Notes: generated from the letters alone by a model not told the origin. DNA of 64,000 nt from Synechococcus sp. PCC 7336 (GCF_000332275.1 NZ_CM001776.1:1473268-1537267), one strand, 5' to 3'; positions 14,946 to 50,366 are shown, numbered from the stretch's first letter. Program-made: numbers and translations.

Positions 14946-17900
14946 ATGCCTTTATCTGATTCGCCCCTCAACACTGGCGGTGCGTCGATCGCCTCTGGCC
15001 TTGTCCTCAATGACGAACTGCCCAGCGGCTCTCTGCTAGAGCAGGCCAGCTTGGAAGGCAATCCCTTCTCGTCGGCCGCCGAATTCGCTAGCCCTGTGGG
15101 GTTTAGCGGGCCGACATCGGGAGACTTAGAGTTGGCTGGCTCATTCGAGGGAGAAGCCATCCCCTTCGAACTGGAAGACCCCAACCAACTGTTCCCCACT
15201 GCCCCCTCCAGTTCGGGCTCGGGCTCTCCAGGCAACAGTTTTCTCTCTTCTCTGGGCTCCGAAGCGGCTGCGACATCACCCGATGCCCTCGCAGGGGAAG
15301 GGACGCTCGCGCTACTGGAGGGCGATGTTGGCTTTGTCACGGCGGCGATCGCCGAACCGTCCAGTGGAGCGACCCTCAGTCTGGCCACCACCTCAGACAG
15401 CTCGCTTGCCTCTGCCAGCCTCACCACCTCTCAAACCATTGAGCTACCCCAGCAGGGGTTCTCGGTGGTCGCCGAAGGGCAATTGTTTATCAATACGGGC
15501 GGAGATTTTGACGGGCAACCCCTAGACCCTAGCGACGATGCACTGATTTATGCAGCCGGTGGATTTACGATCAACAGCCGCCCAGTCCTGCCGGTGGAAA
15601 GGGATGCGAATGGCGATACGGTGACGGACGCGAATGGATTGCCCATTTTAATTGAGGGGGCGATCGCCGTTGCCGCCAACGTCACCACCCTCAACGCCCC
15701 CACCGACCTCTACAGCAATCTGGTTCCGCCGCAAATTGTGACCGAGCAGACGGTCACGGTGTCGGACTGGCAGCAGTTGCGGGATAGTCGTCTGGCGGAG
15801 TTGCCTGTCGATATCCCGACGGTGACCCGACTGTCCAATCTCAATACGGTGGCGGATTTCGAGTCCGCCGTGCCCAGTGGGGCCAGTGCCGACAATCCCA
15901 CGCTCTTGCGGATCGAGCAGGGGGGCTTAACCTTGCCGGATGGAGTCAGTCTCAGCAATGCAGTGCTGATTGTGGAGGCTGGGGCGATTAATTTCAATGG
16001 CTCGGCCACGTTTGAGCATGTGGTGTTGGTGGCCAATGGCGGCAATGTCGATTTGGGGGGCATTCAGGCGACTGGGTTGGAGGTGTATGGCTCGGGCACC
16101 CTCAACATGAATGCGCAGGCTAGCTTTAGCGGCGCGAACAGCTTGGCGGTGGGGGGCAGCGCTCAGTTCAACGGTCGTACCGCCACGACCGAACCGGCAG
16201 ATTTTGTGCAGGTGTCGGCGTTAGGAAATCTGACCTTCAATGCTGTGGCCGATACGCGGGCGGAGTTTCGTACGGCGTCCGATTTTACCTTTAACAATTC
16301 AGCTCAATTAGTTGGCTCGATTGGAGCGAAGCAGAACATCTTTTTCAATGGCGATGCCACGGTGATTGGGGCCTCGGTGGGGGATGGCGATGCGATTCGG
16401 TTGGTGGAAGGCAGCGAGTTTACGGTGACGGCAGAGCAACTGTTGGCGATACCGGAGCAGCCCAGCCTATTGCGTTTCACCTATGACAATCTGCTGTTCG
16501 ATACCGCCGACCCAGATTCGGTTAACGATGCCTTTGAAGTGGCATTGGTGGATGCAACTGGTAACCCATTGGTGCCTGCAATTGGGGGCGATCTGTCTGC
16601 GTTTTTCAACATCACGGAGGGATTGGCGATCGCCACGGGGTCTGGCGTCACCGTTAACGGTCAAACCGTCACGGTCGATTTGTCGGGGATTTCTCCAACA
16701 GCAGAGGCCAATCTGATTTTCCGACTGGTGAATAACGACGAGGATACGACAACTGAGGTTACGATTCGCAATATCGAGCTTTTGGGGGGCGGCAGTGGAG
16801 TCGCGCCGAGTGGCGTGCCCGAGGTGGCGACAGCGGCGCTGACGACTGCGATTGACTTTAGTGGGTTGGAGGATGTGTCGGCCAGCATTCGGGCGGAGTA
16901 CGGTCGCACCACTTGGGATATTGATGGCACGAGGCTGTTTGCGGACTTAGCGGCGCTCAATCGCGGCGGGTTTGATGTGGGCGGGCGATTGTTGGCGGTG
17001 GTGGAGAATATTAGTTCGCCGGATGTGCGCTTGCAGCAGTTTGATGGATTTACGCCGGAGGGATTGCGCTATCTCGATTTGACCCATTTGATTGAGGATG
17101 GCATTCTCTCGCCGGATGAGGTGAGTGGCAGTCGAGAACTGGTGTTCCTCAATCCCGGACAGGTGCAGTTTGACTACGATTTGACCTTTTTGGCTCAGCT
17201 CAATCGGGCTCCCGAGTTTGTGACGCAGCCAGATGTGGAGGTGGTGGCGGGGCAATCCTATCGCTACGATGCCGATGCTGCTGACTTGGATGGAGATGCG
17301 TTGGTCTATACGCTGCTGACGGGACCGAAGGGGCTGACGGTGGATGCGGCGACGGGGTTGGTTAGTTGGGAGACGACGGCTGGGGATGCGGGCACCCATG
17401 TGGTGACGCTGGAGGTGTCGGACGGGCGCGGCGGCATTGATACTCAAATCTATGTGTTGGAGGTGGTGGGAGAGATCCCCAATCGTCCGCCTGTGTTTGT
17501 GTCAACGCCTGTGGTAGATGCCAATGTGGGGTTGGCCTATGAATACGATGCCGATGCGGTGGATGCGGATGGAGATGTACTCACCTATACGTTGTTGGAT
17601 GGGCCGGAGGGATTGGCGATCGATCCGGGGACGGGGTTGATTGAGTGGGAGCCGACGAGCGAGCAATTGGGGTTGCGAGCGGTAACGGTGCAGGTGGAAG
17701 ACAGTCGCGGCGGCGTGGCGATTCAGAACTACGACATTTTGGTACAGCCCGATCCCGAAAACAATGCGCCTATTATCATTAGCGATCCGCTGACTCAATT
17801 TGGTCTATCGGGTTTAGCAAATCCTGCTACGGGAGATGTGAATCCCGATGCGATCGATCTCAACTTGAATGTGGGAGAAAGTTCGACCCAGACGATCTCG

Positions 17901-20900
17901 CTCACGTTACCTGAGGATACTGTCACCACGGCTGTCGATGTCTTTCTCTTATTTGACGATACGGGTAGCTTTGCCAGCACAGCGCCGACACTAGTGTCTC
18001 AGTTCCCGAATGTGATTGACCAACTGGATATCTTGCTACCCAACATCGATTTTGGTTACGGCGTCGGGCGGTTTGAGGATTACTTTGGCTCTGACAAATC
18101 TTTTGTGCTCAACCAACCCATTATTAATACCAACACGACTGGCTTCAGTGACGCGATCGCCGACGCCCTCAACCGTCGTGCCCCAGGAGGAGGGGGAGAT
18201 GGTCCCGAATCGTTGATTGAAAGTCTATTTCAAGTGGCTACAGGTGCGGGCTTCGATACTGATGGCGATGGCGATACCACCGATCGCGGCCCTGCTGGTT
18301 CCAACGACGCTCAATTGCTCGGTGGTGGCGACATTCCAGCCTTCGATACGTTTGAGCCGAACGCTGGTTTGAATGTCTTAGCTCCCAGCGGCAGGTTGGG
18401 TGGAGTGGGTTTTAGAGAAGGAGCCTTGCCGATTATTTTGGCCGCCACGGATGTCGGGACTGCCTATCAACCGGATGGGACCACGACGATTACTGGCAGT
18501 GGTGGTGTAACATTGCCGATCTCTGAGTTTCTCAGCAGCTCTCGCGGCTCTACCCCTGGAGGTCGCGGGGCTACGATTCAAGGCACAGTCGATGCTTTAA
18601 ACGACTTAGGAGCTTTGGTGATTGGATTGGGCACGGGCACCTCAGCGACCTCTGCTCCCCGCCGAACTTTGCAAGCCTTATCGATTGTGACAGGGGCGGT
18701 GAACGGATCTTCTGAGGCGATCGAGAGTGGCATTTCTGGCGATCCAGTTTCCCCAGACGATCCGTTCTATTTCTTAATCAACCGTTCTTCAGGAAGCAAT
18801 TTGGCCACAGGCATCGTGTCTGCTATTCAGTCGGCAGTGACTGCAGTTGATTTCGATATTGATGTCATCCCATCCGATCCGACGGTTTCGGTGACGAATC
18901 TAACTGGCGTGGTTGCAGGGATAGGAACTGGCGAGACTGCTACCTTCGAGCTTGAGTTTGCAGGGGAGAGCACGGCGCGAGCCTTTGACTTGCAGTTTGT
19001 TCGAGCGGGCACGGAAACCGTACTGGGCTCCATTCCCGTCACTATCAATAACGATTATTTCTACGACACTGACGCCATCGATCCCGATGGGGATATCCTT
19101 ACCTACAGTCTGTTAGAGGCCCCCGACGGAGCCACGATTGATGCCGCCAGCGGTCTGATTGCCTTTGAACCCACTCAAAATGGCGAGTTTGACTTCACCG
19201 TGCAAGTGGAAGATGGGCGCGGCGGCTTCGACAGTCAAACTTACATGTTAGACGTGACCGGCATTGCTCCCGGCAGCATTAGCGGCACCAAATTCAACGA
19301 TCTAGACGCAGACGGCATCTTGGACGATGTCGAAGTGCCCGTCGAGCCAGGCTTACCGGGAGTGACCATCTTCCTCGACGACAATGGCAACAATCAGCGG
19401 GACGATGGGGAACGGTTTACCACCACCGATGCCAATGGCAATTACACGTTCTCCGGTCTGTTGCCCGGAACTTACACGGTCGCGGAAGAGCTCCAACCGG
19501 GTTGGGAACAGACAGCCCCTACCGGATTCACCCACGAGGTCGTGGTGGCCTCCAGCCAAGCGGTAACAGACATCAATTTCGGCAACCGCGAAGTACCGCT
19601 CGCCCCCAACCAATCGCCAGAATTTGTCACAGAGCCAGATACGGCTGATATTTTTGCAGGGGATTTCTTCAGATACGAGGCGCGGGCAGAAGATCCTGAG
19701 CGCGAGCGGCTCACCTACGATTTAGCCTTGGCTCCTGCCGGTGCATTGGTCAATCCAGAAACGGGCTTGGTGTTGTGGCAAACTCGACCGGAGCAAATTG
19801 GCCTGCAGAATTTTGTCTTGCGGGTACAGGATGAAAGCGGCGGTGTGGAATTGCAAGCGTTCCAATTAGTGGTGCAACCGCCCAATATCGCCCCCACGAT
19901 TACTTCGGCTCCTCCAGTGCAGGCGATCGCCGAGCTGCCCTTCCAATATCAAGTGCTGGCCCAAGATGCCGATGGCACCGTAGTCGAATATCGCCTCGAT
20001 AGTGCTCCGGCAGGCGTGGCGATCGAGCCGACCACTGGCCTGGTGAGCTGGACCCCCAGCGCCGCTCAAATCGGTCCGACCACGGTTGAAGTGACGGCGA
20101 TCGACGATCGCGCTGCTGAAGTCAGCCAAACCTTCAGCCTCGACGTGGTAGCCGCTGCCCCCAACGATGCCCCCGCGATCGTTTCCACCCCGCGCACCAG
20201 CACGCAGGTGGGTTCGCCCTACTTCTACACAGTCCAAGCCAACGACCCCAACGGCGACCCCCTCAGCTTCACCCTGCTCGACGCCCCCGCAGGCATGACC
20301 GTCGATGCACAAGGCAATCTCGCTTGGCTGCCCACCCCCGACCAATTTGGCGACAACACCGTCACGGTTGAAGTGAGTGACGGTCGGGGCGGCATCGCGC
20401 AACAGAGCTTCACCCTCTCAGTGGTGGCCCAGCGCCTCAATCAAACCCCCGAGATTACCTCGGTTCCCACCAGCTTCAGCGCCACCCTCGGGAACGAATA
20501 TGTCTATGACGCAGTGGGGATCGATGCCGATGGCGATCGCCTTTTCTGGAGTCTAGAAACCGCCCCCCTCGGTTTATCGTTAGACCCCCAAACCGGCACC
20601 CTACGCTGGACCCCCACCGCCGATCTCGTCGGTCGCCACGAAGTCATCCTGCAGGCCACCGACAGTCAGGGAGCCTTTGTCAGTCAAGGGTTTACCCTCA
20701 CCGTTCGCGGTGCCAATCTCCCCCCCGAAATCCTCTCGCCTCCCCTCACTCAAGCAGCATTGGGGCTCCCCTATGCCTACGCCGTCGTAGCACGAGATGA
20801 GGAAGAGGATGCCATTAGCTTCGCGTTGGAATCGGCTCCAGCGGGCATGACCATTGACGGCCAAACCGGTTTGATTAGCTGGACGCCCGATACCCTCGGT

Positions 20901-23900
20901 CCGGTCGAGGTGACGGTAGCGGCGAGTGACAGTCAGGGAGCCATTAGTCGCCAGAGTTACACCCTGGCAGTGACGGAAACGGCAGCGAACCAAGCGCCTG
21001 CCATCACCTCTCAGCCGATCTTTGTGGCAACGCCAGATACCCCCTACAGCTATCAAGTCACTGCTGCCGATCCCGATGCGGGGGATACTCTCACCTTCCA
21101 GTTGTTGGAGGGACCGGCGGGAATGGCGATCGATCCGGCCACCGGGCTCTTGAGTTGGGACCCAACTGCTTTAGATATCGGCACGTTTAGCGTGTCGGTG
21201 GAGGTGGTGGACGCTGGCGGTTTGGCTGGGGCTCAGCAATATACGCTGACGGTGTTGCCCAATACTGCTCCGGTGATTCTTTCCGCTCCGGTGACGCAAG
21301 CGGCGGCAGGACAGATCTATCGTTACGACCTGCGAGCAGCAGACCCCGATGGAGATGCGGTGCAGTTTGAGTTGCTGCAGGCACCAGCTGGCTTGACGAT
21401 TGATGGGTTGGGTCGCATTCGCTGGGAGCCCGGATTGGCGGATGCCGGTCCAGCCACTGTGGAAGTTCGGGCGACGGACGGGCGCGGCGGGATTGCCACG
21501 CAGCTTTTCGAGCTGACGGTGGCGGTGGACGATATTGTGCCGACGGTGGATGTGTTCCCCAGTCTTCGTCCGGTGGGAGTTGGGGAGAGTGTGACGCTGT
21601 TTGCGACTGCTGCGGACAATGTGGGGGTAGAATCGCTCAGTTTGACGGTGAATGGGGTGGCGGTGCCTCTGGATTTGAATGGGTTCTATACGTTTGCGCC
21701 GGAGGTGGCGGGGGATGTGGTGGCGATCGCTACGGCCACGGATGCGGCGGGGAATAGTTCTCAGGCTCAGACGAGCTTTCAGGCGATCGACTTTAGCGAT
21801 GTGGAAGCGCCTGTCATCGATCTGCCAGACTTGTCAGATTTAATAATCACCGCGCCCACCGACATTATCGGTACGGTGAGTGACGACAACTTGCAGTTCT
21901 ACACGCTCTCGGTTGCCCCCATTGGCACTGAGAACTTCCAGGAAATCTTCCGAGGGACGACCCCAGTGGTGGATGGAGTGTTGGGGAGTTTTGACCCGAC
22001 TTTGTTGCAGAACGATGCTTACACATTGCGATTGGAGGCAGTTGATGCGGGAGGTAATTCTATTTCAGTCGATCGCACCGTCAACGTCGCGGGCGATCTG
22101 AAACTCGGAAACTTCCAGCTATCCTTTACGGATTTAGAGATCCCCATTGCAGGGATACCCATTACTATCACTCGGACCTACGACACCCTGACTTCCAATA
22201 TTAGTGATGACTTCGGCTTTGGTTGGCGACTGGAATTCCGCGACACCAACCTGCAGACCAGTCTGGGCCGAGACGAAGTATTCGAGCAATTCGGCATCCG
22301 AACACAAGCCTTTGACGAACGCACTCGTGTTTACATCACATTGCCGGGCGGTCAGAGACAAGCTTTCACCTTTGCACCTACAATCGATCCCATCTCTGCA
22401 TTCTTCCCCTCCATCGGGGGAGGAGACCCTACCTTGTTCAAGCCCGCCTTTATTGGAGATGCTGGAGTCACAAGCACTCTAGAGGTTGAAGATGTTCGAT
22501 TAGGTCGCGCTGCAGACGGAACCTTCTTTGGACTCAATGGCAGTGGGTACAATCCGGCAGATGCCGCGTCGGGGTTTGGCGGTTTTTATAAGCTCACGAC
22601 CAAAGAGGGCGCAATCTACCGAATTGATGCCAATACCGGTGATGTGGAGACCATTACCGATCCTAACGGGAACACCATTACCTTTACTGACGCTGGAGTG
22701 GCTAGCTCCACAGGACAGGCGATTGACTTCGAACGGGATGCCAACAACCGAGTGGCAGCTATCCTCGACCCACTTGGAGAACGCATTCTTTATGAGTACG
22801 ATGTGGAGGGAGATTTGATCGCCGTCACCAATCGAGAAGAGAATACAACTCAATTTAACTATTTAGACACGAGAACCCATTTCTTAGATGAAGTCATCGA
22901 TCCGTCAGGCAATCCTGGTGCGCGTATCAACTATGACGAACAGGGCCGTCTACAACAGGTTTTAGATGTTAACGGAGAAGCAACTCTATTCAGTTTCGAT
23001 CCCAATAATTCAGTTCAAGATATTACAGATATTTTTGGGACTACTCGTATATACGAATATGATGAACGGGGCAATATCCTAACCGAGATCGATCCGACCA
23101 ACACAATCGTTCGACGTAAGTATGATATCAACAACAACATTATTGAGGAAATTGTCTCGACAGGCCCCTCTGAATCGGACGTGCAAGTTACAACCTTCAC
23201 CTACGATAATCTCAGCAACCGCTTGAGTAGAACTAATCCTCTTGGAGAAACAGATCTCTATACCTATACCTCCGGCAGTCAACTGACAAGTCGAGTCAAT
23301 CCATTAGGCCACTCAACACTGTTTGAATACGATGATAATGGCAATTTAAGGTTGAGACAAGATGCAGAAGGTAACATTACAATATATAACTATGATAGTC
23401 GTGGGAACCTTTTAGTTGTTGACGAAGGAACTGCTGGTATTACAACCTTTACCTACGATCGCTTTAACAATGTTGAGTCTGAAACTGACGCACTTGGCAA
23501 TACAACTATCTTTACTTACGACCTAAATGGAAATCAACTCACTGAATCAAGGATAGCCACTACTCCAGAGGGAGTGAGGACAATACTTTCGAGAACAGAA
23601 TATGATAGAGAAGGGAATATAGTTTTAAGTGTTAATCCAGAGGGCGAGGAAACTCGCTCTGAATACGATGCAAATGGAAGAAGAGTCACAGAGATAGATG
23701 CTCTCGGGCGTCGAACAAATTTTGTTTACGACGAGAAGGGGAATCTCATTGAAACAATTTTCCCAGACAATACCCCTGAAAATCTGAGTGACAATCCAAG
23801 AATTCAATCTGGTTTCAATGCAGCTGGCAATCAAATAGGGTTTATCGACCGTGAAAATAATATATTTGGCTATACATATTCCGCTATCGATCAAATTTCA

Positions 23901-26489
23901 AGCTTTATTTTGCCTGACAATTCTCCCGAAGATCTAAATGACAACGATCGCTTTTCCATTGATTACGATATAACGGGATTGGTATCCCAAATCACTCATC
24001 CAAACGATCGGATTACAGAGCTAGAATATGATTTAGCAGGACGACTGGTAACAACTCGTGAATTTGTCAGTGAGGGGCTATTCGCAGAATTTAATGTTAT
24101 TTATGATGCTGATGGCAGAGAGATTGCCAGGATAAATCCGCTAGGAGAAAAAACGGAGTTCATTTATGACAATCTCGATCGACTGATTGAAACTATTTAT
24201 CCTGATTTAAGCCGTGAAACCAGAGAATACGATCGTTCAGGCAATCTCTTAGGTATTGTCGATCGCAATGGAGACAGTACAAGATTTGAATATGATTTAC
24301 TAAATCGTGTTACTGCTGTCGTCAACCCTCTCGGTCATCGCACCGAGTATGAATACGATGAAGTTGGCAATCTCATTCTCCAACGAGATTCTAATGAGAA
24401 TGAAACTCGGTTTGAATACGATGGCATAGGTCGCCAAACGGCGATTGTTCTGCCCTTGAGCCAGCGCAGCCAGACTGTCTATGATGATGTAGGAAATGTC
24501 ATTCAGAGAATTGATTTTAATGGAGAGACAACCAACTTTGAATACAATGCAGAAAATCTTCTAACAGGTATCGACTTCTTATCTGAAGGCCGTACCCTAG
24601 AATTCACCTACACGCCTAATGGCCGAAGAGGCACGGCAATTGACGAACGCGGCACCACTATTTATGAGTATGATGCCCAAGGCAATATTATCTCTCGCAC
24701 AGAGCCTGATGGCAGGAATGTCAGTTACACCTACGATACATCTGGGAATGTGACAAGTGTAACCACCGGTTCTGGTACAACTCAATATGTCTACGATCTC
24801 CTCAATCGATTGGATACTGTTACTCGAAATGGTGAAATTACAGATTATGATTACGATCTCACTGGTAATATCACCCGCATTAAGTATCCAAATGGAATTA
24901 TCGAGTCAAGAGAATACGATAGAGAAAGTCGTGTTACCTCTATAAACAGTCAAACACAGGCAGGTAATATTCTTGCCAGCTATCAGTATACCTATGATGC
25001 TGCTGGCAACATTACATCCGTTGAAGAGCTAGATGGACGGATTGTTACCTATACCTATGATGAGCTCAATCAGCTCCTTCGAGAAGAGATCCAAGATCCT
25101 ATTTCTGGCAATAGAACACTTGAATATACTTACGATAAAGTCGGCAACCGACGGTCACTAGTAGATTCTATCGTTGGTAACATCAGCTATGTCTATGACG
25201 ATAACGATCGCTTGATTTTAGAAATTGAGCCTGACAATACAATCGCTTACTCCTATGACGAAAATGGCAATTTACTAAGATCTGAAGGGTTAGATGGCAA
25301 CAGCAATCAATATACATGGAACTCCCAAAATCAACTAGTTCAAGTGGAATCCTTACTAGCTGGAGAGATCCAGACAGTTGTGCAATATTCCTACGATGCT
25401 GATGGTATTCGTATTGCAACCAATGTTAATGGTGAAGAGATTCGATACCTTATAGATAATAGTCAAGAGTTCGAGCAGGTGCTGGAGGAGTATACTCCAG
25501 ATCTGACTACATTGAGATCGTATGTACACGGCCTATCTAGAATCTCTGAAAGTGAAGACGGTGTTTCGACATTCTTATTACATGACGAGCACAGTGGTAT
25601 TAGGCAAATAACCGATGGAAATGGTCAAGTTCTACAGGAATATGCTTACGATGCTTATGGCAACCCTTCTATTGATGCCGATCGACCAGTAAATGAATTT
25701 CTTTATCAAGGTGAGGCTTACGATGAAGCAGTCGATTTGCAATATCTCCGAGCCCGCTATTACGATCCATCTATTGGACGATTTATCAGCACCGATCCTT
25801 TCCCAGGATTTATCCAAGTTCCACAATCTCGACATAAATATCTCTATGCTAATAACAATCCAGTCAATATCACGGATCCAAGTGGATTGATCTCTACTAC
25901 AGGGCAGGCGAGTGCAGCGCTAGGTGTGCTACAAATTATCCTAGGAACTTACCTTGCTGCAATTGGCTTATCGGTTGCACAAAGTGCGGTAACAAGCTTG
26001 GGTGGTGGTAACGTTGAGTGGACAGGTACTCTCACTCTTGGGAGCACAGGGCCATTATTACCTCAGTTACCTGGGATCAGCGTATTTGAAGGTGAAGGTA
26101 GTTTGCGCGGAACTGCTCAAGGCCAATCTACAACTGTTGAAGTATTCTCAAATCGATGGTTTCAAATTACATCTGGTGTCACAGGCTTACCATCAGCGCC
26201 ATTACCAGATATTCCTTCTTTTACCTCAACGAGGAAAGCTACTTTATTCTCTCCAGGTTTTATTGGGGCTCAAGCAGGAGCCCTAACAGGTGGAGCCACT
26301 TTTATAAGTGGGCGGGCGGGGCTAGCCTCTGGTGGAGCAATAGAACTTGGGTTTGGCATTGGGAACTTTGCTGATGGCTTCGATCAAAGTTTCAGTCGAA
26401 CCGATAATGTTTCATTAAGTACAAGAGTTGGTTTTTCACTTCCACTTGGTAAGCCAGATAATGATTTTGATGTTCGTGTTACGATGTGA
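14946..26489 (+). CDS. Giant modular RHS/YD-repeat protein with variable C-terminal tail
   Basis: 3,847 residues without an obvious signal peptide. Visible order: a Ser/Gly-rich acidic N-terminus (1-160); a beta-helix/adhesin-like region rich in Asn and Gly (~160-600); two Ig-like repeats (~753-940); a VWA-like domain with a DDTGS metal-site motif near 1004; another Ig-like unit; an SdrD-B-like domain (~1443-1545, GVTIFLDDNGNNQRDDGE); seven Ig-like repeats of about 92 residues (~1554-2195); a DUF6531-like entry (LGNFQLSFTDLEIP); many YD repeats (~2590-3590); and the RHS core (QYLRARYYDPSIGRFISTDPF). The tail (~200 residues) starts right after DPSG near residue 3644. Such proteins form a shell around a C-terminal effector. 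The tail is unlike toxins I know. From about 22,900 base composition is distinctly more AT-rich. Confidence 0.9.
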   Translation: MPLSDSPLNTGGASIASGLVLNDELPSGSLLEQASLEGNPFSSAAEFASPVGFSGPTSGDLELAGSFEGEAIPFELEDPNQLFPTAPSSSGSGSPGNSFLSSLGSEAAATSPDALAGEGTLALLEGDVGFVTAAIAEPSSGATLSLATTSDSSLASASLTTSQTIELPQQGFSVVAEGQLFINTGGDFDGQPLDPSDDALIYAAGGFTINSRPVLPVERDANGDTVTDANGLPILIEGAIAVAANVTTLNAPTDLYSNLVPPQIVTEQTVTVSDWQQLRDSRLAELPVDIPTVTRLSNLNTVADFESAVPSGASADNPTLLRIEQGGLTLPDGVSLSNAVLIVEAGAINFNGSATFEHVVLVANGGNVDLGGIQATGLEVYGSGTLNMNAQASFSGANSLAVGGSAQFNGRTATTEPADFVQVSALGNLTFNAVADTRAEFRTASDFTFNNSAQLVGSIGAKQNIFFNGDATVIGASVGDGDAIRLVEGSEFTVTAEQLLAIPEQPSLLRFTYDNLLFDTADPDSVNDAFEVALVDATGNPLVPAIGGDLSAFFNITEGLAIATGSGVTVNGQTVTVDLSGISPTAEANLIFRLVNNDEDTTTEVTIRNIELLGGGSGVAPSGVPEVATAALTTAIDFSGLEDVSASIRAEYGRTTWDIDGTRLFADLAALNRGGFDVGGRLLAVVENISSPDVRLQQFDGFTPEGLRYLDLTHLIEDGILSPDEVSGSRELVFLNPGQVQFDYDLTFLAQLNRAPEFVTQPDVEVVAGQSYRYDADAADLDGDALVYTLLTGPKGLTVDAATGLVSWETTAGDAGTHVVTLEVSDGRGGIDTQIYVLEVVGEIPNRPPVFVSTPVVDANVGLAYEYDADAVDADGDVLTYTLLDGPEGLAIDPGTGLIEWEPTSEQLGLRAVTVQVEDSRGGVAIQNYDILVQPDPENNAPIIISDPLTQFGLSGLANPATGDVNPDAIDLNLNVGESSTQTISLTLPEDTVTTAVDVFLLFDDTGSFASTAPTLVSQFPNVIDQLDILLPNIDFGYGVGRFEDYFGSDKSFVLNQPIINTNTTGFSDAIADALNRRAPGGGGDGPESLIESLFQVATGAGFDTDGDGDTTDRGPAGSNDAQLLGGGDIPAFDTFEPNAGLNVLAPSGRLGGVGFREGALPIILAATDVGTAYQPDGTTTITGSGGVTLPISEFLSSSRGSTPGGRGATIQGTVDALNDLGALVIGLGTGTSATSAPRRTLQALSIVTGAVNGSSEAIESGISGDPVSPDDPFYFLINRSSGSNLATGIVSAIQSAVTAVDFDIDVIPSDPTVSVTNLTGVVAGIGTGETATFELEFAGESTARAFDLQFVRAGTETVLGSIPVTINNDYFYDTDAIDPDGDILTYSLLEAPDGATIDAASGLIAFEPTQNGEFDFTVQVEDGRGGFDSQTYMLDVTGIAPGSISGTKFNDLDADGILDDVEVPVEPGLPGVTIFLDDNGNNQRDDGERFTTTDANGNYTFSGLLPGTYTVAEELQPGWEQTAPTGFTHEVVVASSQAVTDINFGNREVPLAPNQSPEFVTEPDTADIFAGDFFRYEARAEDPERERLTYDLALAPAGALVNPETGLVLWQTRPEQIGLQNFVLRVQDESGGVELQAFQLVVQPPNIAPTITSAPPVQAIAELPFQYQVLAQDADGTVVEYRLDSAPAGVAIEPTTGLVSWTPSAAQIGPTTVEVTAIDDRAAEVSQTFSLDVVAAAPNDAPAIVSTPRTSTQVGSPYFYTVQANDPNGDPLSFTLLDAPAGMTVDAQGNLAWLPTPDQFGDNTVTVEVSDGRGGIAQQSFTLSVVAQRLNQTPEITSVPTSFSATLGNEYVYDAVGIDADGDRLFWSLETAPLGLSLDPQTGTLRWTPTADLVGRHEVILQATDSQGAFVSQGFTLTVRGANLPPEILSPPLTQAALGLPYAYAVVARDEEEDAISFALESAPAGMTIDGQTGLISWTPDTLGPVEVTVAASDSQGAISRQSYTLAVTETAANQAPAITSQPIFVATPDTPYSYQVTAADPDAGDTLTFQLLEGPAGMAIDPATGLLSWDPTALDIGTFSVSVEVVDAGGLAGAQQYTLTVLPNTAPVILSAPVTQAAAGQIYRYDLRAADPDGDAVQFELLQAPAGLTIDGLGRIRWEPGLADAGPATVEVRATDGRGGIATQLFELTVAVDDIVPTVDVFPSLRPVGVGESVTLFATAADNVGVESLSLTVNGVAVPLDLNGFYTFAPEVAGDVVAIATATDAAGNSSQAQTSFQAIDFSDVEAPVIDLPDLSDLIITAPTDIIGTVSDDNLQFYTLSVAPIGTENFQEIFRGTTPVVDGVLGSFDPTLLQNDAYTLRLEAVDAGGNSISVDRTVNVAGDLKLGNFQLSFTDLEIPIAGIPITITRTYDTLTSNISDDFGFGWRLEFRDTNLQTSLGRDEVFEQFGIRTQAFDERTRVYITLPGGQRQAFTFAPTIDPISAFFPSIGGGDPTLFKPAFIGDAGVTSTLEVEDVRLGRAADGTFFGLNGSGYNPADAASGFGGFYKLTTKEGAIYRIDANTGDVETITDPNGNTITFTDAGVASSTGQAIDFERDANNRVAAILDPLGERILYEYDVEGDLIAVTNREENTTQFNYLDTRTHFLDEVIDPSGNPGARINYDEQGRLQQVLDVNGEATLFSFDPNNSVQDITDIFGTTRIYEYDERGNILTEIDPTNTIVRRKYDINNNIIEEIVSTGPSESDVQVTTFTYDNLSNRLSRTNPLGETDLYTYTSGSQLTSRVNPLGHSTLFEYDDNGNLRLRQDAEGNITIYNYDSRGNLLVVDEGTAGITTFTYDRFNNVESETDALGNTTIFTYDLNGNQLTESRIATTPEGVRTILSRTEYDREGNIVLSVNPEGEETRSEYDANGRRVTEIDALGRRTNFVYDEKGNLIETIFPDNTPENLSDNPRIQSGFNAAGNQIGFIDRENNIFGYTYSAIDQISSFILPDNSPEDLNDNDRFSIDYDITGLVSQITHPNDRITELEYDLAGRLVTTREFVSEGLFAEFNVIYDADGREIARINPLGEKTEFIYDNLDRLIETIYPDLSRETREYDRSGNLLGIVDRNGDSTRFEYDLLNRVTAVVNPLGHRTEYEYDEVGNLILQRDSNENETRFEYDGIGRQTAIVLPLSQRSQTVYDDVGNVIQRIDFNGETTNFEYNAENLLTGIDFLSEGRTLEFTYTPNGRRGTAIDERGTTIYEYDAQGNIISRTEPDGRNVSYTYDTSGNVTSVTTGSGTTQYVYDLLNRLDTVTRNGEITDYDYDLTGNITRIKYPNGIIESREYDRESRVTSINSQTQAGNILASYQYTYDAAGNITSVEELDGRIVTYTYDELNQLLREEIQDPISGNRTLEYTYDKVGNRRSLVDSIVGNISYVYDDNDRLILEIEPDNTIAYSYDENGNLLRSEGLDGNSNQYTWNSQNQLVQVESLLAGEIQTVVQYSYDADGIRIATNVNGEEIRYLIDNSQEFEQVLEEYTPDLTTLRSYVHGLSRISESEDGVSTFLLHDEHSGIRQITDGNGQVLQEYAYDAYGNPSIDADRPVNEFLYQGEAYDEAVDLQYLRARYYDPSIGRFISTDPFPGFIQVPQSRHKYLYANNNPVNITDPSGLISTTGQASAALGVLQIILGTYLAAIGLSVAQSAVTSLGGGNVEWTGTLTLGSTGPLLPQLPGISVFEGEGSLRGTAQGQSTTVEVFSNRWFQITSGVTGLPSAPLPDIPSFTSTRKATLFSPGFIGAQAGALTGGATFISGRAGLASGGAIELGFGIGNFADGFDQSFSRTDNVSLSTRVGFSLPLGKPDNDFDVRVTM

Positions 26490-26513
26490 GTTAAATTTTA
26501 CCTAGTAAATAAC

Positions 26514-27221
26514 ATGTATCTTAAAATATTTGATGATGGCTTACATTTGTGGAATGATTTGTCGCTCTATTTTAAATTCTTGCTAGTAGTCTACGTCGTT
26601 TCAGGTTCAGTATTAGGCTATCGCTATGTGTTTGGCACTATCATGAAGTACCGTGTATCAAAAGGCTTACTTCCTATTAGATTAAAAGAGTTTCCAGTCT
26701 ATCAAGCTGACAGGCAGAGATATGCAGAGATCAAAAATCGATGTGACAATTTCATTAACTTAACTCTTAATGGCCAATCTTCTATCCTTCGTCTGAGCTC
26801 CTCTGATATCAATGAGATGTTCTTAATGGGAAGAAGTCGTAGTAAGGCTTCGCCAGGGCGGCATGATTATTACAAGATCGAAGATGAGCGTATCATTCAA
26901 ACAACAATTGAATGGCCTGAGATTACTCGAGATGGATGTTATACGCAAAGAAGAGAAATCACTTTTTCACAAAGACAAGAGGATTGGATAGAGAACTCAC
27001 ATTTCTTTAACAGTCAAGATCATCTACTTAGTAGTCCTAAGGAATGCTATTCAAATGTAAGATTACGTGACTCAAAGATAGTTTCAAACGTTCTCGGAGT
27101 AACGCAATATACTGGAATCCTAAAAAGAACCGATCCAGAAAGATATGAAGAATATGCAAGACTGACAGAGTCTTTTAAAGAAGTAAAAATCAAAGATAAT
27201 ACTCTCACTTTTGTTTCATAG
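26514..27221 (+). CDS. Membrane-anchored protein, candidate immunity partner (copy A1)
   Basis: 235 residues, starting 24 bp after the RHS stop codon. One N-terminal membrane helix (FKFLLVVYVVSGSVLGYRYV) is followed by a cytoplasmic-looking domain. Motifs shared with the proteins at 27,335 and 47,443 are ILRLSSSDINEM, YYKI, IEWPEITRDGC and RREITFS. I do not recognise the family. The position directly behind a variable RHS tail, and a homologue behind a related tail elsewhere in the locus, suggest an immunity role; this is inference. AT-rich like the 3' part of the RHS gene. Confidence 0.7.
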   Translation: MYLKIFDDGLHLWNDLSLYFKFLLVVYVVSGSVLGYRYVFGTIMKYRVSKGLLPIRLKEFPVYQADRQRYAEIKNRCDNFINLTLNGQSSILRLSSSDINEMFLMGRSRSKASPGRHDYYKIEDERIIQTTIEWPEITRDGCYTQRREITFSQRQEDWIENSHFFNSQDHLLSSPKECYSNVRLRDSKIVSNVLGVTQYTGILKRTDPERYEEYARLTESFKEVKIKDNTLTFVS

Positions 27222-27334
27222 TTTACCGATCCTAAGAGCCGACTATAGCGATTCTAGATGAACTATAAATATCGAACCTTGATATCGCTGAGTTTCAGCT
27301 CTCGAAGCGTTTACAACTAATTTAGGATCGCTAT

Positions 27335-28042
27335 ATGTATCTTGAGATCTATGGAATTGGTCGGCATTTGTGGAATACTTTGCCAGCTTATGGGAAATTG
27401 CTGCTAGTAATCTACACAGTCTCAGGCTCAGTATTAGTCTATCGCTATGTGTTTGGCGCTATCATGAAGTACCGTGTATCAAAAGGCTTACTTCCTGATA
27501 GATTGAAAGAGTTTCCTGTCTACCAAACTAGCAGACAAAGATATACAGAGGTTAAGACCCGTTGTAATAGTTTTGTTGCCCTAGCTCTCAATGGCCACTC
27601 TTCTATCCTTCGCTTGAGTTCCTCCGACATCAATGAGATGTCTTTAGTAGGGAAGAGTTGTAGTAAGACTTTGCCAGGGCGACACGATTATTACAAGATT
27701 GAGAATGGATATATCGTTCAGAGAAGAATCGAGTGGCCTGAGATGACGCGAGATGGATGCTGTACCACGAGAAGAGAAATTACTTTTTCAAAGCAGGGAG
27801 AGAATTGGCTGGAGAATTCGTATATTCTGAATGGTCAAGATCGCCTATTTAATAACTCCAAGGAGTACCATTTGAGTGTAAGGTTGCGTGACTCAGAGTT
27901 CATCTCAAACATTCTTGGAGGAACAAGATATACTAGTATTTTAAAAAGATCTGACTCAGAAATATATAAAGAATACATGACATTGACAAAAGCTTTCAAA
28001 GAGATAAAAATTGAAGGTGACAGGCTCGTTTTTGTCTCATAG
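27335..28042 (+). CDS. Second membrane-anchored candidate immunity protein (copy A1')
   Basis: 235 residues, clearly a paralogue of the preceding gene: identical stretches such as YRVSKGLLP, SSILRLSSSDINEM, PGRHDYYKIE and RREITFS, with the same N-terminal membrane helix. It has no RHS tail of its own upstream, so it resembles an orphan immunity gene kept after its partner tail was replaced. The 3' end lies 57 bp before the truncated second RHS copy begins. Confidence 0.7.
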   Translation: MYLEIYGIGRHLWNTLPAYGKLLLVIYTVSGSVLVYRYVFGAIMKYRVSKGLLPDRLKEFPVYQTSRQRYTEVKTRCNSFVALALNGHSSILRLSSSDINEMSLVGKSCSKTLPGRHDYYKIENGYIVQRRIEWPEMTRDGCCTTRREITFSKQGENWLENSYILNGQDRLFNNSKEYHLSVRLRDSEFISNILGGTRYTSILKRSDSEIYKEYMTLTKAFKEIKIEGDRLVFVS

Positions 28043-31000
28043 TCTTCTCCAGGGTAGTCGCACTTAGTTTCGTATTAATTGTACTTGATAAAACGTAGAG
28101 GCGTGGCGATCGAGCCGACCACTGGCCTGGTGAGCTGGACCCCTAGCGCCGCTCAAATCGGTCCGACCACGGTTGAAGTGACGGCGATCGACGATCGCGC
28201 TGCTGAAGTCAGCCAAACCTTCAGCCTCGACGTGGTAGCAGCCGCCCCCAACGATGCCCCCGCGATCGTTTCCACCCCGCGCACCCGCACAAAGGTGGGT
28301 TCGCCCTACTTCTACACAGTCCAAGCCAACGACCCCAACGGCGACCCCCTCAGCTTCACCCTGCTCGACGCCCCCGCAGGCATGACCGTCGATGCACAAG
28401 GCAATCTCGCTTGGCTGTCCACCCCCGACCAATTTGGCGACAACACCGTCACGGTTGAAGTGAGTGACGGTCGGGGCGGCATCGCGCAACAGAGCTTCAC
28501 CCTCTCGGTGGTGGCCCAGCGCCTCAATCAACCCCCCGAGATTACCTCGGTTCCCACCAGCTTCAGCGCCACGATTGAGAACGAATATGTCTATGACGCA
28601 GTGGCGATCGATGCCGATGGCGATCGCCTTTTCTGGAGTCTGGAGACCGCCCCCCCTCGGGTTGTCGTTAGATGCCCAAACCGGCACCCTACGCTGGACG
28701 CCCACCGCCGATCTCGTAGGTCGCCACGAAGTCGTCCTGCAAGCCACCGATAGTCAGGGAGCCTTTGTCTCTCAAGGGTTTACCCTCACCGTTCGCGGAG
28801 CCAATCTCCCCCCCGAAATCCTCTCGACTCCGCTCACTCAAGCAGCGTTGGGGCTCCCCTATGCCTACGCCGTCGTAGCACGGGATGAGGAAGGGGATAC
28901 CATTAGCTTCGCGCTGGAATCGGCTCCAGCGGGCATGACCATTGACGGCCAAACCGGTTTGATTAACTGGACTCCCGATACCCTTAGTCCGGTCGAGGTG
29001 ACGGTGGCGGCGAGTGATAGTCAGGGAGCCATCAGTCGCCAGAGCTACACGCTTGAGGTGACCGAAACGGCAGTGAATCAAGCGCCTGCCATCACCTCTC
29101 AGCCGATCTTTGTGGCAACGCCAGATACCCCCTACAGCTATCAAGTCACTGCTGCCGATCCCGATGCGGGGGATACTCTCACCTTCCAGTTGTTGGAGGG
29201 ACCGGCGGGAATGGCGATCGATCCGGCCACCGGGCTCTTGAGTTGGGACCCAACTGCTTTAGATATCGGCACGTTTAGCGTGTCGGTGGGGGTGGTGGAC
29301 GCTGGCGGTTTGGCTGGGGCTCAGCAATATACGCTGACGGTGTTGCCCAATACTGCTCCGGTGATTCTTTCCGCTCCGGTGACGCAAGCGGCGGCAGGAC
29401 AGATCTATCGTTACGACCTGCGAGCAGCAGACCCCGATGGAGATGCGGTGCAGTTTGAGTTGCTGCAGGCACCAGCTGGCTTGACGATTGATGGGTTGGG
29501 TCGCATTCGCTGGGAGCCCGGATTGGCGGATGCCGGTCCAGCCACTGTGGAAGTTCGGGCGACGGACGGGCGCGGCGGGATTGCGACGCAGCTCTTCGAT
29601 CTGACGGTGGCGGTGGACAATATTGCGCCGACGGTGGATGTGTTCCCCAGTCTTCGTCCGGTGGGAGTTGGGGAGAGTGTGACGCTGTTTGCGACGGCTG
29701 CGGACAATGTGGGGGTAGAGTCGCTCAGTTTGACGGTGAATGGGGTGGCGGTGCCTCTGGATTTGAATGGGTTCTATACGTTTGCGCCAGAGGTGGCGGG
29801 GGATGTGGTGGCGATCGCTACGGCCACGGATGCGGCGGGGAATAGTTCTCAGGCTCAGACGATTTTGCAGGTGCTCGACTTTAGCGATGCGGAAGCGCCT
29901 GTCATCGATCTGCCAGACTTGTCAGATTTAATAATCACCGCGCCCACCGACATTATCGGTACGGTGAGTGACGACAATTTGCAGTTCTACACGCTCTCGG
30001 TTGCCCCCATTGGCACTGAGAACTTCCAGGAAATCTTCCGAGGGACGACCCCAGTGGTGGATGGAGTGTTGGGGAGTTTTGACCCGACTTTGTTGCAGAA
30101 CGATGCTTACACATTGCGTTTGGAGGCAGTTGACGCAGGTGGCAATATCGTTTCGGTGGATCGCACTGCCAATGTTGCAGGCGAGCTCAAATTAGGGAAT
30201 TTCCAAATCTCCTTCACCGATTTAGCCTTGCCGGTGTCTGGCCTTCCCATCTTCCTTACTCGTACCTACGACAGCCTTAGCGCCAACAATAGAGATGAAC
30301 TTGGATTTGGCTGGCGTCTGGAATTCCGCGATACCGACTTGCGTACCAGTTTGGGACGAGATGAGACCTTCGAAATATTCGGTATCCGCACCGAAGCCTT
30401 CAATGAATCCACTCGAGTCTACATTACCTTGCCAGGTGGGAAACGAGAATCCTTTACGTTTGCCCCTACTATCGATCCGGTTTCAGCCTTCTTCCCCTCC
30501 ATTCCAGAAGGCGATCCAACCCTCTTCCGACCGGCCTTTAAAGCAGATGCTGGCGTAACCAGTACCTTAAAAGTGCAAGATGTGCGCTTGGGTCGCGATG
30601 CCAACGGCGATTTCTTCGGGCTGAATGGCGGTCGATACGATCCTGCCAATACTGACTATGGTTTTGGTGGTTTCTATGAACTGACAACCAAAGAAGGGGT
30701 TGTCTACCGCATTAATGCAACCACTGGCGATCTCGATACTGTTACGGATACCAACAGCAACGTCATTACCTTTAGCGATGATGGGGTCGCTAGCTCCACG
30801 GGCCAAGCGATCGTCTTTGAAAGAGATGCCAGTGGTCGCCTCTCTGCCGTCACCGATCCGAACGGTGCGTCCATACTCTACAGCTATAACGCTCTCGGGG
30901 ATCTGGTTGAAGTGACAGACCGCGAAGGGAATACCACTCAGTTGGACTACAGTATCGAGCGCGAACATTTCTTACAGAACATTGTCGATCCGCTAGGAAG

Positions 31001-34000
31001 AACGGGAGTTCGCAACGAATACGACGAACGAGGACGTCTCGTACAATTGATCGATGTAGCTGGTGAGACCATCGATCTGACTTACGATCCGGCTAATGCC
31101 ATCCAAACCACTGTCGATCGACTGGGCAATACGACGATCTCTGAATTTGATGTTCGGGGCAATACTGTCCGAGAAGTCGATGCCTTGGGTGGAATCACTA
31201 CTCGTAGTTTCGATGACGATAACAACGTTCTCAGTGAAACGAATCCAGACGGGGAAACTTCTACGTTTAGCTACGACAGTAACCGCAATTTACTCTCCCA
31301 GACCGATCCTTCAGACAATGGCTTTGTATACTCCTACAGTACCGCCAACCGCCTCAGCTCCACAACCGACGCTTTGGGCAATACAATCCTGTACGCTCGT
31401 GACAGTCGGGGAAATCTGACTGTAGTGACGGATGCCCTCGGCAATGTCACCCGCCACACATACGATCTCGCTGGCAACCGGACCTCAACCACCGACCCAG
31501 ATGGAAGTGTCACCCGATTCAACTACGATCGCTTTGGCAATCTCGTTCTCGAGGTCGACGCTCTCGGCAACGAGACGGCGTCCACTTTCGACAGCAGTGG
31601 CAACCAACTAACTGAAACTAGGACCCGTACTAGTGCCACAGGAGTCGAGACCGCCACCACTATCTTCACTTACGACGCTAATGACAATCAAACCTCGGTA
31701 CTAGATGCTGAAGGGAACCTCATCCAGATGGAATTCGATGCTTTGGGAAACCTGACCGCAACGATCGATGCCTTGGGGCGGCGGACGGATCGGGTTTATG
31801 ACGAAGAAGGGCGACTAATCGAAATTCGTAATCCCGACAGCACCGTCGAGACCTACGCCTACGATGCCGAAGGCCGACAAATCTCTGCCAGCGATCGGGC
31901 GGGAAGGACGACTACCTTTGTCTACGATGCCTTGGGTCGCCGAGTTGAAACGATTTTCCCCGACGCTACGCCAGAGACTCAGGATGACAATCCCCGTCGC
32001 CGCGTCGAATACGATCGCCTCGGGCAAGTAACAGCTCAAATTGACGAATTGGGGCAACGGACCGAATACGATTACGACGAGGCCGGCCGACTGATTCGCG
32101 TCCTGCTCAGTGATGGTGCCGTTGAAACCTTCGAATACGACGCTGCGGACAATCAAATTGCCGCGACCGATGCCCTCGGTCGCACCACACAATTTACCTA
32201 CGATGCCCTCAATCGCCCGATAGAAACGCGCCTGTCTGATGGTAGTACGATGCTCAGACGATACGACGTTAACGGTAATTTAATCGAGGAAATCGATCCG
32301 AGCGGCCAAAGTACCCGTTTTGAGTACAATGACCTCGATCGCCTCACGGCTGTAGTCGATGCCTTGGGCGGGCGGACAGTATATGCCTACGACGAACTCG
32401 GCAACTTGGTTGCCCAGCAGGATGCCAACGATAACCTAACGCAATACGAGTTTGATAATCTCGGACGACGCACGGCGATTGTACGCCCCTTGGGTCAACG
32501 CTCCACTGCCACCTACGATGCCGTCGGCAATCTAATCTCGTCCACCGACTTTAACGGCAACACGACAACGCTGGAATACAACCTCGCGAATTTCTTAATA
32601 TCCCAAGCTTTCGACGATGGCTCGACGATCGCCTACACCTACACACCTACTGGAGAACGAGAAACTGTCACTGACAGCAGCGGCACGACAACGTATGTCT
32701 ACGACGAACGTCAGCGGTTGCTCTCCCGCACCGAGCTGGACGGACAGTTTGTCACTTACACATATGACTTGGCAGGTAATATCGCTTCGGTTTCAACAGC
32801 AACCGGAACGACGCAGTACACATACACATCGCGCAATCAACTCGCTAGTGTCATTGACGCTAATGGTGGGACGACAAATTACAGCTACGATCCCGTCGGC
32901 AACCTCCTTGAAGAGAGATTGGCGAATGGCTCCGTAGTTAGCCGCACATACGACGTCCTCGATCGCGTTTCGAACTCGCAAACAGCCGATAGTAGTGGTA
33001 CCTTACTGGCCAGCTATATCTATACCTTTGATGCCAACGGCAACCGTACCTCCGTCAGCGAGCTAGACGGACGCAGCGTAGATTACACTTACGACGAGCT
33101 CCAACGCCTTGTCGCAGAACAGATGACCAATCCCAGCATTGGCGATCGCACCATCTCCTATACCTACGATGCTGTCGGCAACCGTACCACTCGGACAGAC
33201 TCGCTTGATGGCATCACTACCTACAGCTACGACGATAACGATCGCCTGCTAAGTGAAGTCCTCGCCGGAGACACCACCACCTACAGTTACGACAACAACG
33301 GTAATTTAGTCGCAGAAATTGGGACAACTGCACAAACTACTTACAGATGGAACGCACGCAACCTCCTCTCTGCAATTGAAATCGTCGACGCCACCAGCAT
33401 TCGACGCACCGACTATACGTACGATGCCGACGGCTTGCGTACAGGCGAAGTGACAGACGGTCGGGCCACTCGCTTCTTACTGGATACTAATCGGGCCAAC
33501 GCTCAAGTCTTAGTGGAGCTGGCTTCAGACGGCACTCCTCAAGTTTCTTATACTTACGGCCTCGCTCTCATCTCTCAAGATCGCGATGGCAGCCAGTCAT
33601 TTTATCTCCATGACGAACATAGCGGCGTCCGAGCCCTAACAGATGCCTCTGGATTAGTGACCGATAGCTATATCTACGATGCCTACGGCGAGATCGTTCA
33701 GGCGATCGGTCTCACCGAAAATGTCTATCTTTACCGTGGCGAACAGTTCGACACAGACTCAGGGCTGCAATACCTCCGCGCCCGCTACTACGATCCCGGC
33801 ATCGGTCGATTTACTAGCACCGACCCCTTCGAAGGGTTGCTGACATCGCCGATATCTCGCCACCGATACCTATACGCCAACGACAACCCCATTACATTCT
33901 TGGACCCGAGTGGTGCAATATCAATCACCGCAGAACGAGGGGCAGCCGACCAGATTTTTGCCACCCTGCAGCGAATTAATTGGAATCGTGTAGTCGGCGT

Positions 34001-34307
34001 CGGATCAATTGCCCTCGGTGTTTTGGCGTCGCTCCGTAATGGCTTTATCCGATGGTCCGGGACATCGCGCTCTTTTGGAGCCAACGTCCCCGCGTTGGAA
34101 AGTATGACAGGGATATTCGGTTCTGCAGGATTCACTCTTGTTGATACCACATCCGAATGTGCGGTCGGACTCAATACTGGCTTCACTCCTCTGGAAGTCA
34201 GCGCGAGGTACGTTCTTGCCACCATCGGAGCCGGTATCCCTATTGATGGTTCTGCTGGGCCGAGTGTCACCCTAGACATCGCGGGAGAATTCGAAGCATT
34301 CACTAAG

Positions 34308-35167
34308 AGCGTGTCTGAAAAGGTCAGCAGATAAAGTTGAGAGGCTGAGTTAGAGCCTCCCAACCAATGACACGCCAATCCTACGACACCGATCTAACCC
34401 CTGCCCAGTGCGAGCTTCTAGCTCCGCTATTACCGCCAGCTAAGCCAGGCGGTCGTCCCCGCAGCGTCAACGTTTTCGAAGTGGTCAATGCCATCTTCTA
34501 TCTGTTGAGAGCCGGATGTGCCTGGCGTCTGCTGCCCCACGACTTCCCCGCTTGGCAAACGGTCTACTATTACTTCCGTCAGTGGGAAGCCGATGGCACC
34601 TGGGAAGCTCTCAACCATGCTCTGCGCCAGCAACTGAGAGAAACGGTGGGGCGCAATCCTTCTCCCTCGGCAGCCTGCCTGGATTCCCAATCGGTCAAAA
34701 CAGCTGGTGCCGCTCAAGAAACAGGCTTTGATGGAGGCAAAAAAGTTAAAGGTCGCAAGCGCACTATCCTGGTTGATACGATGGGTCTACTGCTGGGTGC
34801 CAAGGTCCACAGTGCCCGACGCTCCGACCATGACGGCCTCACCTTGCTGGGGATTTGGTTTGCCAGTATGTGGAGTTGCTTGCAATTGATTTGGACCGAT
34901 AAAACCTTTGGTGGCAAATCTTTTGTGGCTTGGGTTGAGCAAGCGTTTGGCTGGACTATTGAAGTCGTACAACGGCCTGCTGAGCAAAAAGGGTTCCAGC
35001 TTTTACCTCGGCGATGGGTGGTTGAGCGCACCTTTGCCTGGTTTGGTCGATACCGTCGCTTGAGCAAGGACTACGAATATTTGCCCACTACGAGTGAGAC
35101 GATGCTTTACGCTGCTATGGTCAATCTCATGCTTCGTAGGCTGGCTTGAGACTTTTCAGACACGTTC
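34308..35167 (+). mobile_element. IS5-family insertion sequence
   Basis: 860 bp with terminal inverted repeats (left GAGCGTGTCTGAAAAGG; right end in reverse complement GAACGTGTCTGAAAAG) and a 3-bp target duplication TAA at 34,305-34,307 and 35,168-35,170. It interrupts the tail of RHS cassette 2. Confidence 0.9.
34367..35149 (+). CDS. IS5-family transposase
   Basis: 260 residues, intact. The N-terminal region (DLTPAQCELLAPLLPPAKPGG) is the usual IS5 DUF4096-type domain. The DDE domain shows DSQSVKTA with its Asp, HDGLTL and IWTDKTFGG, and the terminal WVVERTFAWFGRYRRLSKDYE with the catalytic Glu. It should be functional. It lies in the same orientation as the interrupted RHS frame. Confidence 0.92.
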   Translation: MTRQSYDTDLTPAQCELLAPLLPPAKPGGRPRSVNVFEVVNAIFYLLRAGCAWRLLPHDFPAWQTVYYYFRQWEADGTWEALNHALRQQLRETVGRNPSPSAACLDSQSVKTAGAAQETGFDGGKKVKGRKRTILVDTMGLLLGAKVHSARRSDHDGLTLLGIWFASMWSCLQLIWTDKTFGGKSFVAWVEQAFGWTIEVVQRPAEQKGFQLLPRRWVVERTFAWFGRYRRLSKDYEYLPTTSETMLYAAMVNLMLRRLA

Positions 35168-35426
35168 TAAGGGCGAGTTGGGACCCGATCCGTTCTTACT
35201 CACCCCCTTCACTGTGCAGCTGGATGTCAATACCTCTGCTGCCGGAGGCGGACAGATCGTTAGCTTCCTCATGGGAGTTGGTGCTGCTACAATCGCCGCG
35301 CCTACGTCTGCCATACCCGCTGTATCCGCAAGTATCAACGGAGGACTTTCGCTACCCGTTCCGGGAACAATTGTTCGCCATCCTTGTTCATTATAGCCTG
35401 CACGATTCGTGGCCGATGGTTAATAA

Positions 35427-35594
35427 TACTTACACAATCTTTTCGACTTAGCTTTCAGTAATTATGGGGAAGTTACAATTGATTTCCACATTAAAAAGAT
35501 GAGTTCTAGATATGCTGAGGACTGGAAGTATATTTGCATGCCTAGTGAATTACCTAGACTAGTATGCGCCTTTGGTGAAAAGGAGAGTAAGTGA
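35427..35594 (+). pseudogene. Short gene remnant ahead of the ankyrin gene
   Basis: An open frame of 55 codons (includes NYGEVTIDFHIKKMSSRYAE and DWKYICMPSELPRL) ends in a TGA that overlaps the GTG of the ankyrin gene. It has protein-like composition but no start codon at its 5' end. It could be the 3' end of a lost immunity gene; I do not recognise it. Confidence 0.3.

Positions 35595-49500: not shown

Positions 49501-50366
<866 letters not shown>

What the first reader, a model, noticed from the sequence alone, without database searches (positions are those of the whole stretch)
25887..28042. New candidate tail-immunity family: Gly-rich hydrophobic RHS tail with membrane-anchored WPE-DGC protein
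Two RHS tails (after 25,886 and after 46,800) are homologous but diverged, sharing GAQAGALTGGA and VGFSLPLG, and each is followed within 65 bp by a member of one small-protein family (WPExT[RK]DGC, RREI[TS]FS, one membrane helix). Tail and partner diverge in parallel. I do not recognise the tail as a nuclease, deaminase or other named toxin; the hydrophobic segments and membrane-anchored partner would fit a membrane-active toxin. Function is inference.
Basis: partly seen in the sequence, partly recalled or inferred. Interest (0 to 1): 0.75.

Follow-up and report, generated by a model that had tools for sequence, protein, structure and literature searches.

The report
RHS toxin tips with membrane-anchored partners
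A cyanobacterium carries two versions of an undescribed, probably membrane-attacking tip on its large RHS weapon proteins, each followed by a membrane-anchored protein that probably protects the producer; the partner protein family also lives alone in other cyanobacteria, so it is not dedicated to these tips.

Summary
Two RHS genes are identical for 3,476 bp and then, at the DPSG/Leu junction, switch to tails only 51% identical. Each is followed 24 or 63 bp later by a member of one single-helix membrane protein family (43-66% identical; three copies, the only ones in the genome). Low GC, spacing and purifying selection match the immunity genes behind this genome's other ~20 RHS tails, some with recognisable toxin or immunity domains. 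So a tip-immunity module is the best reading. The claim of one 'tail-immunity family' needs correction. Partner homologues in nine other cyanobacteria never lie beside RHS genes, and four of those genomes lack RHS genes. A tail homologue in another cyanobacterium (E 4e-5 among ~90 RHS tails) sits after an RHS core but precedes an unrelated multi-helix membrane protein. The tail therefore pairs with membrane proteins in general, not with this family. That supports a membrane-acting toxin, but toxicity is untested and the tail could not be modelled (pLDDT 27). The partner models well (pLDDT 89.5) with only a weak, non-unique resemblance to TULIP/YceB lipid-binding folds. Closest precedent: the Rhs pore-former Tse5 with its membrane immunity protein Tsi5.

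The parts
14946..26489 (+). RHS protein 1 (3847 aa): Ig/cadherin-like repeats, RHS repeats, core end, tail 1
   Evidence: ORF; Pfam RHS_repeat 2e-99, He_PIG 2e-97
22410..25885 (+). RHS core block, 100% identical to 43324-46799
   Evidence: blastn
25875..25892 (+). DPSGL|I junction; Leu-Ile is the cleaved bond in Tse5
   Evidence: sequence; PMC10684867
25887..26489 (+). tail 1, candidate membrane-acting tip; hydrophobic segment at residues 9-36, GAQAGALTG Gly repeat
26514..27221 (+). partner P1 (235 aa), N-terminal membrane helix plus alpha/beta domain, candidate immunity
   Evidence: GC 36%
27335..28042 (+). partner P2 (235 aa), paralogue of P1, 66% identical, dN/dS 0.23
28464..34334 (+). third RHS gene; tail from 33915 weakly related to tail 1 (z 4.5-4.9), cut by an IS
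34367..35149 (+). transposase of the IS that interrupts the third tail
35150..35400 (+). remnant of the third tail beyond the IS, ending GGLSLPVPG
35591..36664 (+). membrane-anchored ankyrin-repeat protein, possible partner of the third tail
   Evidence: Ank Pfam hits; N-terminal hydrophobic helix
43348..47379 (+). RHS protein 2, 5' end broken by an IS4-type element; tail 2 from 46801
46801..47379 (+). tail 2
47443..48105 (+). partner P3 (220 aa)

Best explanation
These are two (probably three) alleles of an RHS polymorphic-toxin tip. The RHS shell should cut itself after DPSGL and release a ~200-residue tail that opens with a hydrophobic segment and is rich in Gly/Ala/Ser. Most likely the tail inserts into the cytoplasmic membrane of a rival cell and depolarises or permeabilises it. 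The adjacent membrane-anchored protein is the producer's immunity factor, holding its soluble domain at the membrane (cytosolic face by the positive-inside rule) to block insertion or assembly. Shown: architecture, tail homology, partner family. Predicted from sequence: the membrane helix and its orientation. Inferred: cleavage, toxicity, membrane target, immunity.
For: Core identical, tip and partner diverged at the DPSGL junction. Partner gap and GC (36-40% vs core 53%) match the genome's other RHS partner genes (31-41%, mostly 0-60 bp), some of which are SUKH or Imm32, behind tails such as Tox-REase-2 and PT-HINT. Partners under purifying selection (dN/dS 0.23). Tail homologue in another genome, also straight after an RHS core (E 4e-5 among ~90 tails; z 9.0-9.6), with a multi-helix membrane partner 77 bp on. 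Membrane partners follow 4 of 4 tails of this type against 14 of 79 other cyanobacterial RHS tails (Fisher 0.0017; 0.009 counting only the 3 firm members). No recognised enzymatic toxin domain. Literature precedent: Tse5/Tsi5 (PMC9637101, PMC10684867), EsxX (PMC12744356), CDI ionophores with membrane immunity (PMC11630599).
Against: No toxicity data. The tail's first hydrophobic segment is also common in this genome's nuclease-bearing RHS tails, so it may be only a linker. Gly-zipper count is not above shuffled expectation in tail 1 (P 0.16; tail 2 P 0.03). The tail model is unusable. Partner homologues in nine other genomes are not near RHS genes. The membrane-partner test was made after the pattern was seen, on few and non-independent tails.
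Confidence: 0.5

Rival explanations
1. The tail is an enzyme acting at or outside the cytoplasmic membrane (lipid, cell wall), and the membrane-anchored partner neutralises it there.
For: Membrane-anchored partners also suit toxins with periplasmic targets; conserved Trp, Asp/Arg positions such as FDQSFSR in tails 1 and 2.
Against: The FDQSFSR stretch is not kept in the tail of L107/L242; no enzyme family hit; P1-P3 have positive charge after the helix, predicting a cytosolic domain.
Confidence: 0.17
2. The tail is only an RHS linker or entry segment whose toxin domain was lost or was never there; the partner is a leftover or unrelated gene.
For: Gly-rich hydrophobic segments occur in linker regions of the genome's other RHS tails, ahead of their toxin domains; partner relatives live without RHS.
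Against: Length (~200 aa) matches complete tails; 51% identity with saturated synonymous sites means the full tail has been kept by selection; motifs at the very C-terminus (VGFSLP) persist in another genome.
Confidence: 0.17
3. The partner family has a general cellular role in cyanobacteria (membrane-tethered, perhaps lipid-handling) and was recruited once beside an RHS gene, then duplicated with it; it may or may not be immunity.
For: Solo homologues beside housekeeping genes in nine genomes, four of which have no RHS; weak TULIP/YceB-like fold (Z 4.8).
Against: In this genome all three copies, and no others, stand at the immunity position with immunity-like GC; orphan immunity genes are common, e.g. 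ExiC/ExiD (PMC12744356).
Confidence: 0.16

Closest known systems
Tse5/Tsi5 (Rhs pore-forming effector and membrane immunity, Pseudomonas aeruginosa; PMC9637101, PMC10684867)
   Same: RHS shell, DP...DPxGL junction with Leu-Ile after it, short C-terminal fragment without a known enzyme domain, membrane-protein immunity gene
   Different: No detected sequence similarity in the PDB search; Asp-Asp spacing 27 here against 22-23; Tsi5 has two predicted membrane helices, P1-P3 have one plus a ~180 aa domain; no PAAR or T6SS part seen
Glycine-zipper membrane-depolarising toxins (TelE, EsxX; PMC10434224, PMC12744356)
   Same: GxxxGxxxG stretches in a hydrophobic C-terminal domain; membrane-bound immunity in part
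   Different: Zipper not conserved in position between tail relatives and not above shuffled expectation in tail 1; different carrier (LXG vs RHS)
CDI ionophore toxins and CdiI (PMC11630599)
   Same: Polymorphic tip plus small hydrophobic immunity protein, both diverging
   Different: Different carrier; five-helix ionophore vs unmodelled Gly-rich tail; CdiI are 72-100 aa two-helix hairpins
Bacterial TULIP proteins YceB/DUF1439 (PMC6791001)
   Same: Partner C-terminal domain gives a weak structural match to YceB 3L6I (Z 4.8, 122 residues) and to CETP and LBP
   Different: Actin-capping protein scores equally (Z 5.0); no sequence match; YceB is a periplasmic lipoprotein, the partner is predicted to face the cytosol

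Membership tests
RHS polymorphic toxin tip-immunity module | RHS repeats and Rhs-associated core directly before the tail | tested here: met
RHS polymorphic toxin tip-immunity module | Conserved core with exchangeable, diverged tip | tested here: met
   100% identity to 25885, then 51% aa identity
RHS polymorphic toxin tip-immunity module | Small gene immediately downstream with tip-like composition | tested here: met
   Gaps 24 and 63 bp, GC 36%
RHS polymorphic toxin tip-immunity module | Tip toxic, neighbour neutralises it | not testable with these tools
   Needs expression assays
RHS polymorphic toxin tip-immunity module | Partner family tied to toxin loci in other genomes (supporting, not strictly required: immunity genes can be orphans) | tested here: not met
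   Homologues in nine genomes, none beside RHS
Rhs pore-formers of Tse5 type | Aspartyl-protease motif DPXG-X18/19-DPXG | tested here: inconclusive
   DPFPG...DPSGL with both Asp kept, but spacing 27
Rhs pore-formers of Tse5 type | Sequence homology to Tse5-CT | tested here: inconclusive
   No PDB sequence hit with the tail profile; no fold comparison possible
Rhs pore-formers of Tse5 type | Membrane-integrated immunity protein | tested here: met
   By prediction only: one helix in P1-P3; multi-helix partner in L242
Rhs pore-formers of Tse5 type | C-terminal fragment forms membrane pores | not testable with these tools
   Needs expression and electrophysiology or dye assays
Glycine-zipper toxins | Conserved GxxxGxxxG in the toxic domain | tested here: inconclusive
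   GAQAGALTG in tails 1 and 2; not above shuffle in tail 1
TULIP / YceB fold (partner) | TULIP fold | tested here: inconclusive
   Z 4.8 to 3L6I, tied with CapZ 5.0; no Foldseek hit under E 0.001

The most novel reading that the evidence does not exclude
A new fold class of RHS pore-forming tip, neutralised by interchangeable, unrelated membrane-tethered immunity proteins, one of them a membrane-anchored lipid-binding-like domain co-opted from a cyanobacterial housekeeping family.
Probability: 0.15. Interest if true: 0.7.

Novelty: new member of a known kind. Interest (0 to 1): 0.45.

Why it matters
Few RHS tips without an enzyme are known, and Tse5 is the main studied case. A second, unrelated tip family in cyanobacteria with swapped membrane partners would show that membrane attack by RHS proteins is broader, and would give a clean system for testing how different membrane proteins block the same toxin. 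The partner family, without a match in Pfam, NCBIfam or PHROGs, is also a route to see how an ordinary cellular protein becomes an immunity gene.

Tried and rejected
Pfam, NCBIfam, PHROGs and PDB sequence searches with tails and partners gave nothing meaningful; PADLOC gave one weak hit to one partner member (PDC-M19B, 6e-4), not followed. Scans of genome contigs with tail and with partner motifs found no relatives. One viral-contig hit to the Gly-rich part (L092) is probably chance and was not followed. Plasmid tblastn: none. AlphaFold of the tail failed. Foldseek gave no significant hit to the partner. Hydrophobic-moment analysis does not decide between helical and beta insertion (beta z 0.2-1.9, alpha about -1 to 0). 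Tail B in L242 and the IS-cut third tail share W-x-G and G-x-SLP motifs with the family, but statistics are weak (z 2.2-4.9), so they are called possible and probable members only. Partner presence correlates with RHS presence across 390 cyanobacteria (6 of 9 vs 91 of 381, Fisher 0.009), but four of the nine are one genus and adjacency is never seen outside this genome.

Full report
What is there. The window lies in a cyanobacterial chromosome of 5.07 Mb held as one contig (that it is a cyanobacterium is inferred from gene content and HIP1-like gcgatcgc sites). RHS gene 1 (14946-26489) and RHS gene 2 (43348-47379) share a block of 3,476 bp that is 100% identical (22410-25885 and 43324-46799). 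The first mismatch falls at the codon after DPSG, that is, where RHS proteins of this type are cut (Leu-Ile in Tse5, PMC10684867). Beyond that point the two tails are 50.5% identical with synonymous sites saturated, so they are old alleles joined to a recently homogenised core.

Partners. P1 (26514-27221) follows tail 1 by 24 bp, P2 (27335-28042) follows P1, and P3 (47443-48105) follows tail 2 by 63 bp. P1 and P2 are 66% identical, P1 and P3 43%. dN/dS is 0.23 for P1-P2 and for P1-P3, so they are maintained genes. Each has one N-terminal hydrophobic helix with net positive charge after it, predicting a cytosolic C-terminal domain. They are the only family members in the genome.

Local control. 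The genome has 31 Rhs-associated core matches. The tails behind them include Tox-REase-2, PT-HINT and DUF4258-like regions, and the next genes include SUKH and Imm32 proteins. Partner genes sit mostly 0-60 bp behind the tail at 31-41% GC against about 53% in the cores. P1-P3 fit that pattern (36-40%). They differ in one respect: none of the 18 other RHS partner genes within 250 bp (transposases set aside) has a membrane helix by the same criterion.

Partner family elsewhere. A profile of six partners finds the family in 9 of 390 cyanobacterial genomes, own included, and a single-sequence search of another draw added one more genome (G340). In every one of the nine other genomes the neighbours are ordinary genes (gnd and an aldo/keto reductase, ABC-2 permeases, oligopeptidase and RecQ, phosphoglycerate kinase and others), never RHS. 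Four of the nine have no RHS core at all.

Tail family elsewhere. The tail alone was not found in the other genomes of a 386-genome cyanobacterial draw, nor in genome contigs. A two-row tail profile run on 45 chosen genomes gave one full-length weak match (E 0.045) that proved to lie exactly behind an RHS core ending in DPSGL (L107/L242). Against about 90 cyanobacterial RHS tails collected it is the only significant match (E 4.1e-5), with z 9.0 and 9.6 to tails 1 and 2. Shared features are a hydrophobic N-terminal segment, EWxG, LxSPxxxGA...L[TS]GG and VG[FI]S[LI]P. Its neighbour, 77 bp on, is a 172-aa protein with at least two membrane helices, unrelated to P1-P3, and that genome lacks the P1-P3 family. 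A second RHS tail there, pointing the other way, has W-x-G and GISLP motifs and also a membrane partner, but its kinship is not statistically secure. In the window a third RHS tail is probably of the same type. It is cut by an IS and its pieces were compared apart (pre-IS piece against tail 1 z 4.5-4.9; post-IS piece against the L242 tail z 3.4). The next intact gene after it is a membrane-anchored ankyrin protein.

Reading. Tails of this type are followed by membrane proteins of different families in 4 of 4 loci with an uninterrupted tail, against 14 of 79 other cyanobacterial RHS tails (Fisher 0.0017; 0.009 with the three firm members). The comparison was made after the pattern was noticed and the tails are few and related, so it is suggestive only. 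It nevertheless favours a toxin acting at the membrane. The closest functional model is Tse5, an Rhs pore-former neutralised by the membrane protein Tsi5 (PMC9637101). Enzymes at the membrane or in the periplasm remain possible, as does a tail that is only a linker.

Structure. AlphaFold gave no usable tail model (pLDDT 27). The partner model is good (pLDDT 89.5, pTM 0.80): a membrane helix, a second helix, an alpha/beta core with a five-strand sheet, and a C-terminal helix with a strand pair. Foldseek found nothing significant; VIA-align put capping protein (Z 5.0), YceB (Z 4.8), CETP (4.5) and LBP (3.9) close together. TULIP-like is a lead, not an assignment.

Verdict. A tip-immunity module is likely, a membrane-acting tip is the best of several readings at about one in two, and the specific tail-partner family pairing does not generalise. 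It is a new member of a known kind.

Noticed in passing
G000, whole genome; e.g. 3.44-3.60 Mb (L030-L034): The genome carries 31 Rhs-associated core matches, one of the larger RHS sets seen here, many with different tails on shared cores.
   Followed up: partly
window 33900-36664: Third RHS tail interrupted by an IS and followed by a membrane-anchored ankyrin protein, a possible alternative immunity gene.
   Followed up: partly
L242:7568-10625: Another cyanobacterium has two oppositely oriented RHS modules, each with a Gly-rich tail and a membrane partner, meeting tail to tail.
   Followed up: partly
window 49835-59047: CRISPR array with 103 copies of the repeat core CAGGTGATTTCCCAAGGTGTGGGAAA; the minus-strand genes at 60003-63948 look like type III effector genes (by eye only).
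   Followed up: no
G000:C1:3604171-3604617: Phage-sheath-family gene directly beyond the main RHS cluster, so a contractile injection system could be the delivery route.
   Followed up: no
L059, L061, L057: One relative genome (G474) holds three divergent copies of the partner family on separate contigs, suggesting expansion unrelated to RHS.
   Followed up: no
L131, L247: Other cyanobacterial RHS tails that end in beta-like Gly-rich sequence (PGIGLKVPF, FAPFGIGAGV) and precede membrane proteins; may be further membrane-type tips.
   Followed up: no
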